DNA of 64,000 nt from Conexibacter sp. SYSU D00693. GTDB taxonomy: Bacteria; Actinomycetota; Thermoleophilia; Solirubrobacterales; Solirubrobacteraceae. The notes under the pieces are model-generated. The model saw nothing but the letters and a program-made list of their open reading frames with translations, did no database searches and was not told where the DNA came from. Numbering within the stretch: position 1 is the stretch's first letter; every line of letters begins with the position of its first letter. Location of the stretch: the NCBI RefSeq assembly GCF_017084525.1, contig NZ_CP070950.1, forward strand, positions 2,542,001 to 2,606,000, written 5' to 3'. A program made the translations under genes and the position numbers. This document shows positions 9,426-64,000 of this stretch, piece after piece.

Positions 9426-9444
9426 AAGGTGCCAGGCACCTTTC
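9426..9444. repeat. Palindromic element, GGTGCC-A-GGCACC type
   Basis: AAGGTGCC-A-GGCACCTT (9426-9442) followed by TC. Read on the minus strand, the stop codon TGA of the Lrp gene (9445-9443) runs straight into AAAGGTGCCAGGCACC. The same sequence with a T centre is at 17168, again on a stop codon. No transposase is nearby. It resembles REP-type elements mobilised in trans. Confidence 0.85.
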
Positions 9445-17167: not shown

Positions 17168-17184
17168 GGTGCCTGGCACCTTTC
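17168..17184. repeat. Palindromic element, GGTGCC-T-GGCACC type
   Basis: GGTGCC-T-GGCACC followed by TTTC. On the minus strand the stop codon TGA of the purine permease (17185-17183) continues into AAAGGTGCCAGGCACC, exactly as at 9426. It also lies three bases after the stop of the nitrilase-like gene on the plus strand, so it separates two convergent genes and could act as a terminator hairpin. Confidence 0.85.
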
Positions 17185-23744: not shown

Positions 23745-25499
23745 CTAGCCCACTATGACGTCCAGCGCGTGGTGCGCCCGGCGCAGGCGGCACGCGTCGG
23801 GCGTGCAGGTGGCGAGCTCGACGTCGAGGTCGACGCGGCCCGCGCCCGGCGCGAGGTCGAGCTCGAGGGCCTCCGGCAGGCGGTCGAGCGCGAGGTGCAC
23901 CGGCTCGGCGAGGAGCGCCGACCGAGCGGTGAGGCGGACCGGCGCGTCCATCGCCGTGTCGAGGTCGTCGTCGGGCAGGACCAGGCCGGTGAGCGGGACC
24001 GGCGCGCCGGGCGCGAGGACGACCGGATCCGCGACGGTGCGTCCGACGTCGAGTGCGAGGGCGAGCGCCGGGTCGGCGGCGGGGTCGACGACGACGATCC
24101 GGTGCGCGCCGGTGTCGGCGACGACGAGCCGGCCGCCGGGCAGGAGGTCGAGGCCGCCGGGCTCGGTGAAGCCCTCTACCGGGACTGTCCACAGGTGGCG
24201 CCCGCGCCAGACGCGCAGCAGCCCGTTGAAGGTGTCGGCGACGTAGAGCGCGCCGTCGGGCGCGGCCGCGACGCCGAGCGGGTGCTGCAGCCGCGCGCGG
24301 TCGCGGTCGCCGTCGGCGTCGCCGAAGACGAACAGGCCCTGGCCGACGAGCGTCTCGACGTCGAGCGTCGCGCGGCGCAGGAGGCGCAGCGCGCTCGTCT
24401 CGCTGTCGACGAACGCGAGGTCGCCGTCCGGCGTGACGGCGAGGCCGCTGGGCTGGGCCAGGAGCGCCCGGTAGGCGGGCCCGTCCACGATGTTCTCCCC
24501 CGCCGTGCCGGCGATGACCTGCGGCTCGCCGTCGGCGTCGATCCCGATGAGCCGGTGGCGTCCGGCCTCGGCGACCACGAGGTGGCCGTGCCAGCGCACG
24601 ACGTCCCACGGCGACGTCACCGCGTCGGTGACCAGCTCGCGCTCCCCGCCGCCAGCCGGGATCCGCCACACCAGGTCGGCCGCCGTCTCGCAGACCAGCA
24701 GCGACCCGTCGTCGTCGAAGCGCACGCCCTGGGGCATGTAGAGCCCGCCGTGCTCGGCCAGCACCTCGCCGTCGAGCGCCAGCTCCAGCACCCGGTCGTG
24801 CCCCGTGTCGGCCACCGCCAGCCGGGCCCCCTCCGGGCTCGCGCAGACCTTGCCGGGGAACAGCAGCTCCGATGCGACGGGGTCTGACCCCGAGCGTGCG
24901 ACGGGGTCTGACCCCGATGCGACATGCCCTGGCACCGATGCGACGGGGTCTGACCCCGAGCGCGCGACGGGCTCTGACCCCGATGCGACATGCCCTGGCA
25001 CCGATGCGACGGGGTCTGACCCCGAGCGTGCGACGGGGTCTGACCCCGAGCGTTCCTGGAGGAGCTGCTCGATGCCCGCGGCGAGGCGGGGCGCGTTGCC
25101 CTCGCCGGAGACGGTGAGCGCGACGCGGCCGGTGGCGTCGATGAGCACGAGGGTCGGCCAGGCGCGCACGCCGTAGGCGTCCCAGAGCGTGCGGTCGGCG
25201 TCGTCGAGGACGGGGTGCTCGATGCGGTGGCGGGCGATGGCGGCCCGGACGGCCTCGTGGTCGTGCTCGTGGGTGAACTTCGGCGAGTGGACGCCGACGA
25301 CCACGAGCTCGTCCGGGCCGAAGCGCCGCTCGAGCCCGCGCAGCTCCTCCAGCGCGTGCAGGCAGTTGATGCACGCCAGCGTCCAGAAGTCGAGCAGGAC
25401 GACCCGGCCGCGCAGCGCCTCGAGCGAGAGCCCGTCCGTGCCCAGCCAGCCGCCGCTGCCGCGGAGCTCGGGGGCGCGGACGCGGGCGCGGTCGAGCAC
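23745..25499 (-). CDS. NHLRC2-like thioredoxin and beta-propeller protein with an inserted repeat
   Basis: 584 residues in the order of the NHLRC2 family: a thioredoxin-like domain with the active site ACINC (about 40-44, within LDFWTLACINCLHALEEL), a six-bladed NHL beta-propeller (for example GVAAAPDGALYVADTFNGLL), and a C-terminal beta domain. Unusually, the linker between the thioredoxin and propeller domains (about residues 150-210) is built from a 22-residue repeat containing RSGSDPVA and SVPGHVA, encoded by a tandem palindromic DNA repeat. The frame stays open through it. GTG 25499 was chosen, four bases after the SixA stop; the upstream extension is only a shadow of SixA. Role in bacteria unknown; human NHLRC2 is linked to redox and lung disease. 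Confidence 0.9.
   Translation of the reverse strand: MLDRARVRAPELRGSGGWLGTDGLSLEALRGRVVLLDFWTLACINCLHALEELRGLERRFGPDELVVVGVHSPKFTHEHDHEAVRAAIARHRIEHPVLDDADRTLWDAYGVRAWPTLVLIDATGRVALTVSGEGNAPRLAAGIEQLLQERSGSDPVARSGSDPVASVPGHVASGSEPVARSGSDPVASVPGHVASGSDPVARSGSDPVASELLFPGKVCASPEGARLAVADTGHDRVLELALDGEVLAEHGGLYMPQGVRFDDDGSLLVCETAADLVWRIPAGGGERELVTDAVTSPWDVVRWHGHLVVAEAGRHRLIGIDADGEPQVIAGTAGENIVDGPAYRALLAQPSGLAVTPDGDLAFVDSETSALRLLRRATLDVETLVGQGLFVFGDADGDRDRARLQHPLGVAAAPDGALYVADTFNGLLRVWRGRHLWTVPVEGFTEPGGLDLLPGGRLVVADTGAHRIVVVDPAADPALALALDVGRTVADPVVLAPGAPVPLTGLVLPDDDLDTAMDAPVRLTARSALLAEPVHLALDRLPEALELDLAPGAGRVDLDVELATCTPDACRLRRAHHALDVIVG
24871..25050. repeat. 66-bp tandem repeat of palindromes inside a gene
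   Basis: Two full 66-base units (24871-24936, 24937-25002) and a partial third. Each unit holds two copies of GGGGTCTGACCCC and one GACATGCCCTGGCACC. Palindrome copies are at 24879, 24903, 24945, 24969 (one mismatch), 25011 and 25035. The unit length is 22 codons, so copy number can change without frameshift. Unit 2 differs from unit 1 at two bases only, which suggests recent expansion. Confidence 0.95.
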
Positions 25500-62969: not shown

Positions 62970-63305
62970 ATCAGCGCCTGGACCCTGACCCTCCGCCGCC
63001 GCGGGAAGACCGAGAAGGCGCGCTTCGACGACGCCGGCACGGCCTTCCTCGCCCTGGAACGCCGCCTCGACGAGCTCGCCGCCACCGAGCGCCGCGGCAC
63101 CGAGAAGGCCTTCGTGCGCGAGGTGGAGCCGGTCCAGCAGGTCGCCGCCCGCGCGGAGCTCACCGGCCCGGACCGCCGCCGCGGCGGCGTCGACCTGCGC
63201 GGCGACGGCTCCCGCGAGGCCTTCACCGGCCGCTGGCGCAAGGAGGTCGTCGAGCAGCACCCCGGCGAGGACGCCGTCGCCGCCCTGCGCCGCGCCCTGG
63301 CGTGA
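62970..63305 (+). CDS. Small protein whose start codon appears to be ATC
   Basis: The frame from 62970 to the TGA at 63303-63305 encodes 111 residues (ISAWTLTLRRRGKTEKARF...) with very GC-rich third positions throughout. An in-frame stop lies at 62958, and the only other codons between are GCT CGG GCG, so no ATG, GTG or TTG can start the full protein; the first ordinary start in frame is GTG 63114, which would cut it by half. The protein is charged, with helical FLALERRLDELAATER in the middle, and no family is recognised. The TGA is the first part of a palindromic element. Either AUC initiates translation, or the base is a sequence error or mutation. Confidence 0.65.
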   Translation: MSAWTLTLRRRGKTEKARFDDAGTAFLALERRLDELAATERRGTEKAFVREVEPVQQVAARAELTGPDRRRGGVDLRGDGSREAFTGRWRKEVVEQHPGEDAVAALRRALA

Positions 63306-63334
63306 GAAGCAGGGGCCTGTCCCCTTCTTCGCAC
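63302..63334. repeat. Palindromic element, GGGG-CCTGT-CCCC type
   Basis: Begins GTGAGAAGCAGGGG and continues CCTGTCCCCTTCTTCGCAC. The GTGA includes the stop codon of the gene at 62970. Arms GAAG and CTTC extend the central palindrome. A second copy in the same orientation is at 63424, and a decayed relative (GCCC-N7-GGGC beside GAAGAAG) at about 63377-63397. Confidence 0.85.
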
Positions 63335-63423: not shown

Positions 63424-63456
63424 GTGAGAAGCAGGGGACTGTCCCTTTGTCCTCAC
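63424..63456. repeat. Palindromic element, GGGACTGTCCC type
   Basis: GTGAGAAGCAGGGGACTGTCCC then TTTGTCCTCAC; ends pair as GTGAG/CTCAC and the centre as GGGAC-T-GTCCC. Its right end contains the stop codon TGA of the minus-strand PfkB gene (63455-63453). Convergent genes end on both copies. Confidence 0.85.
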
Positions 63457-64000
63457 GCGACGCGGAGGGGGGCGCCGTCGAGGAGGGTCGCCGCGGAGGC
63501 GACGTCCGGCGCCGGCAGGCAGAGCGTCGCCGCGCCGCAGCGGGCGCCGAGGGCGCAGGCGTCGGGGAGGGGCAGGCCGGCACCGAGGGCGTAGGTGAGC
63601 CCGGCCGCGAAGGTGTCGCCGCACCCGTAGCTGTCGTGCGGCGTCCCGGGCAGCGGTGCGGCGCTCCAGCGGCCGGCGCCGGCGGCGTCGCACAGCCGCG
63701 CCTCGGCCAGGTCGTCGCTCGCGCCACCCGGTCGCCAGTGGCCGCCGGCCGCGCCCTCGGTCTGCACGACGGTGCGGGCGAGCGCGGCGAGGGTCTCGTC
63801 GACGCGCTCGCCGCCGTCGCTCGCGCTGCCCACGACGACGTCCAGCACGATGCCCGCCTCGACGAGGGCGTCGCGGGCGCGCGGCGTGGCGACGACGACC
63901 TTGGCCGCCCGGGCGGCCCGGACCGCCGCCGCGTCGCCGCCGGTGACGTAGACCGCGTCCCACGTCGCCGCGTCGTCCCAGCCGAGGTCGTCCGAGCCCC
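63453..64000 (-). CDS. PfkB-family kinase, cut by the right edge
   Basis: C-terminal 181 residues of a ribokinase-type sugar kinase; the start lies beyond the window. The visible part includes AVYVTGGDAAAVRAARAAKV, a strand-helix of the core, and the catalytic stretch DSYGCGDTFAAGLTYALGAG, in which the usual GAGD is GCGD. The C-terminus ends LLDGAPLRVA. The stop codon lies in a palindromic element. The substrate cannot be told. Confidence 0.88.
   Translation of the reverse strand, partial: GSDDLGWDDAATWDAVYVTGGDAAAVRAARAAKVVVATPRARDALVEAGIVLDVVVGSASDGGERVDETLAALARTVVQTEGAAGGHWRPGGASDDLAEARLCDAAGAGRWSAAPLPGTPHDSYGCGDTFAAGLTYALGAGLPLPDACALGARCGAATLCLPAPDVASAATLLDGAPLRVA

What the first reader, a model, noticed from the sequence alone, without database searches (positions are those of the whole stretch)
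24871..25050. Mobile-type palindromes expanded in frame as a protein linker
A 66-base unit made of two GGGGTCTGACCCC palindromes and one GACATGCCCTGGCACC is repeated 2.7 times inside the NHLRC2-like gene. 66 is 22 codons, all six frames of choice avoid stops in the coding frame, and the insert lies just between the thioredoxin and propeller domains, where a linker can vary. Near identity of units suggests recent growth. It appears that an otherwise intergenic repeat family has been turned into coding sequence (RSGSDPVA, SVPGHVA).
Basis: seen in the sequence. Interest (0 to 1): 0.78.

Follow-up and report, generated by a model that had tools for sequence, protein, structure and literature searches.

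The report
Mobile DNA repeat became protein linker
A short mobile-type DNA repeat that usually sits between genes lies in the flexible joint of a bacterial two-domain protein and has grown there without breaking the reading frame; this is a clear and apparently recent example of something already reported in other bacteria.

Summary
Confirmed: window 24869-25049 is a 66-bp unit repeated 2.7 times, in frame inside a 584-residue thioredoxin-NHL gene (23745-25499, minus). The core occurs 88 times exactly in this one-contig genome; the 22-base unit 79 times here and in 0 of 145 other genomes of the family. Arrays flank an IS200-like (RAYT/TIRYT) transposase gene on both sides; its stop codon lies in a core. 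None of 8 orthologues in relatives has the repeat in the linker; a second array-bearing gene shows the same against one orthologue. The insert is predicted disordered (residues 155-209) between folded domains. By my gene calls, 15 of 21 arrays are intergenic and 6 intragenic, all in frame, in two peptide frames. Best reading: a transposase-linked palindromic repeat entered a variable linker, grew by tandem duplication, and was tolerated because frame was kept. In-frame repeats of this general kind are published (PMC3733652), so this is a new member of a known kind. Transposition, neutrality and any linker function are untested.

The parts
24869..25049 (-). In-frame tandem array, 66-bp unit (A-A-B) x 2.7, encoding residues ~151-211 (SGSDPVARSGSDPVASVPGHVA...)
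   Evidence: TRF; translation; unit order
24879..24891 (+). A core 1, GGGGTCTGACCCC exact
24903..24915 (+). A core 2, exact
24922..24936 (+). B element 1, ACATGCCCTGGCACC exact
24945..24957 (+). A core 3, exact
24969..24981 (+). A core 4, one mismatch (GGGCTCTGACCCC; gives SGSEPVA instead of SGSDPVA)
24988..25002 (+). B element 2, exact
25011..25023 (+). A core 5, exact
25035..25047 (+). A core 6, exact
23745..25499 (-). Host gene: thioredoxin-like + NHL-repeat protein (584 aa), NHLRC2/SOQ1-like; GTG start chosen by me
   Evidence: PF13905, PF00578, PF01436; PDB 6gc1 human NHLRC2, 7djj SOQ1; model

Best explanation
The array is a REP-like mobile palindromic repeat of the RAYT/TIRYT kind (cognate to an IS200-like HUH tyrosine transposase). 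It inserted into the naturally variable linker of a thioredoxin-NHL protein gene and then grew in place by head-to-tail duplication of an A-A-B unit whose lengths (24 + 21 + 21 = 66) are multiples of three. The gene stayed open because the insertion and each duplication kept the frame, the coding orientation has no stops, and the encoded Gly/Ser/Asp/Pro/Val/Ala-rich segment is predicted disordered between two separately folded domains. Shown here: the array, its frame, its absence from orthologues, the many copies found in this genome and in no other genome of the family that was searched, the flanked transposase gene, and (by prediction) the disorder. Inferred: mobilisation by that transposase, growth in place by slippage or unequal recombination, and near-neutrality for the protein.
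For: Array verified. 88 exact cores in one 4.43-Mb contig, reversed-pattern control 0. The 22-base unit (up to 2 mismatches): 79 here, 0 in the 145 other family genomes, control 0. RAYT gene #1 (genome 286115-286909, 264 aa, start chosen by me) has arrays at 285983-286065 and 286901-287000, and its stop TGA lies in a core. It has HIH, a tyrosine in RYIPLNPVRGG, and YHVT, as RAYT hallmarks in PMC2817692. Of 13 RAYT loci of this family read by eye, 11 have palindromes beside them; of 21 Y1_Tnp loci scanned, 5 have this core. Orthologues: 8 of 8 without the repeat in the linker; the 6 other rows of alignment A1 have a short linker (one, L105, covers the same DNA as one of the 8). A second in-frame array (alanine-racemase-like gene, L040) is missing from its one orthologue, 70% identical. 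Linker pLDDT below 50 at 155-209; thioredoxin part 62-92 and propeller 83-97 in ten-residue means. 15 of 21 arrays intergenic, whereas the same gene caller puts 92% of the window in genes (binomial P about 1e-12). All 17 in-gene spacings are multiples of 3, against 37 of 48 intergenic (Fisher P 0.05).
Against: Mobilisation is not shown. In the small RAYT tree the five genes beside this core fall in three separate places (several rows poorly trimmed), so RAYT-core co-evolution is not supported here. Two genomes with many cores (G004, 10; G020, 42) show no Y1_Tnp match, though both are only 64-68% complete. Most own-genome arrays are head-to-tail, not the inverted pairs typical of REPINs. Only the idealised A unit folds far better than shuffles (z -5.0); the unit as written in this array gives z -2.0 (7 of 200 shuffles as good) and the B element z +0.4. 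No reads were available. The insertion point cannot be fixed to the base because the orthologues are only 54-61% identical. For 4 of the 6 in-gene arrays the orthologue test was ambiguous, inconclusive, failed or not tried. Gene calls are from my own script.
Confidence: 0.8

Rival explanations
1. Functional domestication: the repeat peptide was selected as a linker that improves spacing or flexibility between the thioredoxin and propeller domains, and array growth was adaptive.
For: It sits in the inter-domain linker and is predicted disordered. The two differences of the second unit are one conservative D-to-E change and one silent change. Several other in-frame arrays also lie in segments that look flexible: kinase-membrane linker, C-terminal tail of a sigma factor, middle loop of an MFS protein (positions inferred).
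Against: The six intragenic arrays use two different peptide frames, so no one peptide is favoured. Relatives do without it. The family is depleted from genes.
Confidence: 0.1
2. The array matters as nucleic acid: the mRNA hairpin or DNA cruciform slows translation between the domains or acts on transcription, and the peptide is incidental.
For: The coding strand folds as RNA at -115 kcal/mol, z -8.2 against dinucleotide shuffles. REPs in general are proposed to act as RNA elements (PMC3733652, passages and section 15).
Against: Any tandem palindromic repeat would fold like this; the insert is missing from the orthologues, so no conserved hairpin is kept here.
Confidence: 0.06
3. Assembly artefact: the array or its copy number in this gene was created by misassembly of a dispersed repeat.
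For: The family is dispersed and repetitive, and no reads could be checked.
Against: The genome is one contig of 4.43 Mb. The array is in frame with both domains and no frameshift. The exact 66-bp unit has no close match in the 23 other own-genome loci compared (best 11 of 66 mismatches), although an A-A-B order with other spacings does occur elsewhere (for example L044, L052).
Confidence: 0.03

Closest known systems
Intragenic REPs (GTAG and CGTC families), for example in O. terrae, Thauera and R. conorii, including the Rickettsia elements RPE-4 and RPE-6 (Di Nocera et al. 2013, PMC3733652; abstract, sections 6, 15, 16 and passages read)
   Same: Palindromic mobile-type repeats, mostly intergenic, some read in frame within genes; clusters there encode up to 43-82 residues; the authors suggest that insertions may be neutral in flexible linkers or loops.
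   Different: Here there is no consistent GTAG tag, and the stem and loop differ from the CGTC families; the array is head-to-tail and built from two element types (A and B); the host is an actinomycete.
TIRYT / TIRtron repeats with motif GGGGWSAS (same paper, section 16; discussed as TnpA_REP subclass 2.1 in PMC6006769, passages read)
   Same: The strand reading GGGGTCAG fits GGGGWSAS; the repeats flank an IS200-like tyrosine transposase with HUH and Tyr motifs; there is a weak C-terminal helix-turn-helix match (below its curated cut-off).
   Different: TIRYT repeats inside proteins were not mentioned in what I read; here most arrays are in direct orientation.
REPIN/RAYT systems of Pseudomonas (PMC3116915; search listing and start of abstract only)
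   Same: Short palindromes spread through a genome that also holds a RAYT gene.
   Different: REPINs are inverted pairs (recalled); most arrays here are direct tandem arrays.

Membership tests
REP / REPtron (RAYT with flanking cognate REPs) | Short palindrome in many dispersed, mostly intergenic copies | tested here: met
   88 exact cores in 29 clusters, 23 of 29 intergenic (one of the 23 overlaps the last 9 bases of RAYT #1)
REP / REPtron (RAYT with flanking cognate REPs) | The repeat forms a stem-loop | tested here: met
   7-bp GC stem around a one-base centre in each A-type 15-mer; idealised A unit z -5.0, unit as in this array z -2.0, B element z +0.4: met for A, not for B
REP / REPtron (RAYT with flanking cognate REPs) | RAYT gene flanked by the same repeat on both sides | tested here: met
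   RAYT #1 with an array whose last core ends 49 bases before its ATG and one overlapping its stop codon; the two arrays are in opposite orientation
REP / REPtron (RAYT with flanking cognate REPs) | RAYT protein hallmarks: HUH, catalytic Tyr, N-terminal Thr, NP(L/V)(R/K)xG | tested here: met
   HIH, RYIPLNPVRGG, YHVT in RAYT #1; list from PMC2817692 passages. Y1_Tnp scores 27.8 bits in the genome search but 22.3, just under its cut-off of 23, for the shorter start first given
REP / REPtron (RAYT with flanking cognate REPs) | GTAG (or GTGG) unpaired tag at one end | tested here: not met
   GTAG or GTGG lies within 12 bases of only 10 of 80 A-type 15-mers
CGTC-tagged REP | Terminal unpaired CGTC; 8-9 bp stem starting with A-T pairs; 4-5 base loop; no transposase association | tested here: not met
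   The letters CGTC do lie within or up to 12 bases beside 78 of 80 A-type 15-mers, but they overlap the G-C end of the stem, the stem is GC-rich with a one-base centre, and the family flanks a transposase (features)
TIRYT / TIRtron | Flanking repeats with GGGGWSAS motif | tested here: met
   GGGGTCAG on one strand of every exact core; motif
TIRYT / TIRtron | C-terminal HTH and placement in TnpA_REP subclass 2.1 | tested here: inconclusive
   HTH_38 at 18.5 bits, cut-off 27; no tree against named subclasses was made
REPIN | Two REPs in inverted orientation as the mobile unit | tested here: inconclusive
   Own-genome arrays are nearly all direct; inverted neighbours in L033 (first pair) and L042; +/- pairs 33 bp apart in relative G020
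NHLRC2 / SOQ1-like thioredoxin-NHL protein | Thioredoxin-like domain followed by NHL propeller | tested here: met
   (6gc1, 7djj)

The most novel reading that the evidence does not exclude
This repeat family is shaped to be safe inside genes: five of six frames are open and most unit lengths are multiples of three even in intergenic arrays (18 of 26 per-array distinct spacings). The transposase-repeat system would then act as a genome-wide donor of in-frame disordered segments, with six proteins already altered in one species.
Probability: 0.08. Interest if true: 0.7.

Novelty: new member of a known kind. Interest (0 to 1): 0.36.

Why it matters
It is a clean case of mobile-type non-coding DNA becoming protein sequence: a repeat found in only one of the genomes searched, its likely transposase gene and repeat-free orthologues can all be compared. 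It adds an actinomycete case of transposase-linked repeats read in frame. It also warns annotators that the same low-complexity peptides in unrelated proteins of one genome can be mobile DNA rather than a shared motif.

Tried and rejected
Considered and rejected: (1) an old protein feature, because 8 of 8 orthologues and 6 of 6 other aligned rows have a short linker; (2) one selected peptide, because the six in-frame arrays use two frames; (3) plain GTAG- or CGTC-type REP membership; (4) a ready-made 66-bp cassette copied from elsewhere: no close copy in the 23 own-genome loci compared (best 11 of 66 mismatches).

Led nowhere: orthologue checks for four of the six in-gene arrays. MFS protein: 1 of 8 genomes gave a homologue at E 1e-20 or better (35% identity), which aligns through the array region with small gaps, so presence or absence cannot be judged. 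Sigma factor: 8 of 8 genomes have homologues, but which is the orthologue is unclear; I compared 7 of the 9 fetched loci, printed only one alignment at length (L115; it ends at residue 243, before the array) and cut the other six to their headers. Kinase: both searches failed at the machine. Coiled-coil protein: not tried. Paper searches: the core sequence gave 0 papers; RAYT with Solirubrobacter gave 3, judged irrelevant from title and start of abstract; palindromic repeats with Thermoleophilia taxa gave nothing relevant among the 10 listed of 210. The RAYT tree used roughly trimmed proteins and is weak. Gene calls come from my own codon-usage script trained on the window. Six arrays that it puts between genes could lie in an N-terminal extension of a neighbour if translation began at a start codon further upstream (first array of L032, second of L033, L034, L037, first of L042, L052). 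The spacing lists were typed by hand; I left out one spacing of 72 in L036 (also a multiple of 3), whose last copy is a degenerate core of the other kind, and the eight clusters of the related A2 type.

Full report
WHAT IS THERE. Window 24869-25049 holds a 66-bp unit in 2.7 copies with 96% matches and no indels. It contains six A cores (five exact GGGGTCTGACCCC, one with a single mismatch) and two B elements (ACATGCCCTGGCACC) in the order AABAABAA, spacings 24, 21, 21, 24, 21, 21, 24. It lies inside a gene on the minus strand, 23745-25499, and is read as SGSDPVARSGSDPVASVPGHVA.... Five of six frames through the array are open; the sixth has 6 TGA, one per core. The second unit differs from the first, and from what there is of the third, at the same two positions.

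THE HOST PROTEIN. The 584-residue product has a thioredoxin-like domain (PF13905, PF00578) and NHL repeats (PF01436). Its best solved relatives by profile are plant SOQ1 (7djj, 7djk) and human NHLRC2 (6gc1). An AlphaFold model from a 7-row alignment has mean pLDDT 79.8 and pTM 0.71. Residues 155-209 (the array encodes about 151-211) are below 50. Ten-residue means are 62-92 in the thioredoxin part, 83-97 in the propeller and 52-83 in the C-terminal part. The array is thus predicted to be the disordered joint between two folded domains.

ORTHOLOGUES. Six congeners and two other members of the family have the gene, and none of the 8 has the repeat in the linker, which is short and variable there. 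In G002 the gene is split between frames, and in G005 the contig ends at the linker; neither shows a core in the linker. A scan of these loci finds no core with up to one mismatch except one at the far 3' end of the G002 gene, at its stop codon. In alignment A1, named relatives (Solirubrobacterales MAG RYN_252, Conexibacter sp. RYN_258, Paraconexibacter antarcticus) and homologues from other phyla (Brocadia, Planctomycetia, Omnitrophota) have a short linker, 6 of 6 rows. The Conexibacter row covers the same DNA as the G004 locus, so it is not independent. The organism itself is unnamed; its relatives place it near Conexibacter and Paraconexibacter (inference).

THE REPEAT FAMILY. The core occurs 88 times exactly in the 4.43-Mb single contig, with 0 for the reversed-pattern control, in 29 clusters when one mismatch is allowed. 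Twenty-one clusters are of the A type (C-GGGGTC-N-GACCCC-G, arrays or single copies). Eight are of a related type (A-GGGGTC-N-GACCCC-T within a longer palindrome; seven single, one double) and all eight are intergenic. The 22-base A unit with up to 2 mismatches is found 79 times in this genome and in 0 of the 145 other family genomes searched, so among the species held this form is confined to this one. The bare core is patchy: 12 of 61 genomes searched have it, the window's own included.

IN GENES AND BETWEEN GENES. With a simple codon-usage gene caller trained on the window (60 genes, 92% of bases), 15 of 21 A-type clusters are intergenic (one of them overlaps the last 9 bases of RAYT #1) and 6 intragenic. 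If placement ignored genes, 6 or fewer in 21 would have P about 1e-12 (this takes the window's coding share for the whole genome). The six hosts are the thioredoxin-NHL protein, a Ser/Thr kinase (between the kinase domain and an apparent membrane segment), an alanine-racemase-N-domain protein, an ECF sigma factor (C-terminal tail, nine copies), an MFS transporter (middle of the protein) and a coiled-coil-like protein without a Pfam match over its cut-off. All 17 spacings inside genes are multiples of 3, against 37 of 48 in intergenic arrays (Fisher P 0.05). Three use the GSDP frame and three the RGQTP/RGLTP frame. For the alanine-racemase-like gene, 1 of 8 genomes has an orthologue (G034, 70% identity); it has a shorter loop without the repeat. 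The other four could not be judged: MFS ambiguous, sigma factor inconclusive, kinase search failed twice, coiled-coil protein not tried. The sigma-factor ORF has a low coding score (0.11 per codon), so that case is less sure. Six arrays counted as intergenic could lie in an N-terminal extension if a further start codon were used.

THE TRANSPOSASE. The genome has three Y1_Tnp (PF01797) genes. RAYT #1, 286115-286909 (264 aa), has A arrays at 285983-286065 and 286901-287000; its stop TGA is inside the first downstream core. It carries HIH, a tyrosine in RYIPLNPVRGG and YHVT, the hallmarks named in PMC2817692 (passages). RAYT #2 lies between imperfect palindromes around GTGCCAGGCAC, and #3 between GGGGACTGTCCCC palindromes. 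Among 13 RAYT loci of the family read by eye, 11 have palindromes beside them (all but G006 and G001). Of 21 Y1_Tnp loci scanned, 5 have the GGGGTCNGACCCC core. In relative G028 the RAYT stop codon is likewise inside the core. Of 7 genomes with ten or more cores, 5 have a Y1_Tnp match, against 10 of 54 others (Fisher P 0.008; not corrected for relatedness). Against: RAYTs with this core fall in three places of the small tree.

MECHANISM. Best supported: the repeat is mobile DNA of the RAYT/TIRYT kind; one copy or a small composite entered a linker that varies in length anyway; the A-A-B unit then duplicated head to tail in place. Arrays differ in their core spacings (24, 29, 33, 40, 42, 45, 54 and others; some are shared between arrays), and the window's 66-bp unit has no close match in the 23 other own-genome loci compared. 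Both point to growth in place rather than copying of a finished array. Staying open needed frame keeping, which holds; tolerance is inferred from the predicted disorder. Transposition by RAYT #1 and the growth process are inferred, not shown. As RNA, the coding strand of the array folds at -115 kcal/mol, z -8.2, so an effect on the message is possible.

COMPARISON WITH THE LITERATURE. In-frame intragenic REPs, with clusters encoding 43-82 residues and the suggestion that linkers or loops tolerate them, are described in PMC3733652 (abstract, passages and sections 6, 15 and 16). Its TIRYT repeats share GGGGWSAS, which GGGGTCAG fits. PMC6006769 (passages) says that most published TIRYTs fall in TnpA_REP subclass 2.1 and that Actinobacteridae in its sample carry only subclass 1.1. 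REP-like sequences have been counted in three Actinomycetota genomes by RepRanger (PMC12306157, passages), so REPs in this phylum are not new as such. I found no paper on this core or on RAYT repeats in this taxon in the listings; these cover open-licence full texts only.

UNEXPLAINED. Multiples of three are in excess in the intergenic arrays too: 18 of 26 per-array distinct spacings (P 0.0002 if independent) or 8 of 13 distinct values (P 0.03). Shared ancestry of the 24- and 21-bp units may explain most of it. A form fitted for in-frame safety, or past translation of some of these arrays, is not excluded.

VERDICT. A known kind of event in a further host group, with several independent lines of evidence. 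Interest moderate.

Noticed in passing
window 9428-9440 and 17168-17180: Single palindromes GGTGCCAGGCACC and GGTGCCTGGCACC, each followed by TTTCA, resembling the flanks of the genome's second RAYT gene (L091): a second repeat family in the window.
   Followed up: partly
window 63302-63334 and 63424-63457: GTGAGAAGCAGGGG... palindromes resembling the flanks of the third RAYT gene (L101, GGGGACTGTCCCC). That core occurs at 38 places in the genome, in two of four regions read in 45- or 66-bp tandem arrays (L137, L136), with no gene overlap of an array called in those two.
   Followed up: partly
L032 3067-3115 and the same place in L101, L088, L102, L089, L087, L100, L090, L086: A similar leader of about 40 nt (GGGGCGA ...) directly upstream of many RAYT start codons of this bacterial family, between the palindromes and the gene; not part of the repeat (by eye only).
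   Followed up: no
L041 2945-4471 (own genome 1870244-1871770): ECF sigma-factor gene whose C-terminal tail holds nine A copies in the RGQTPSHA frame, over 100 residues; the largest in-gene array found.
   Followed up: partly
L043 (second copy), L045, L047, L048: In 4 of the 8 clusters of the related A2 type the gene's stop TGA lies in the outer arm of the palindrome (TGAG...).
   Followed up: partly
L057 2716-2728 (relative G002): A one-mismatch core (GGGGCCTGACCCC) at the stop codon of the same thioredoxin-NHL gene in a relative, not in the linker.
   Followed up: partly
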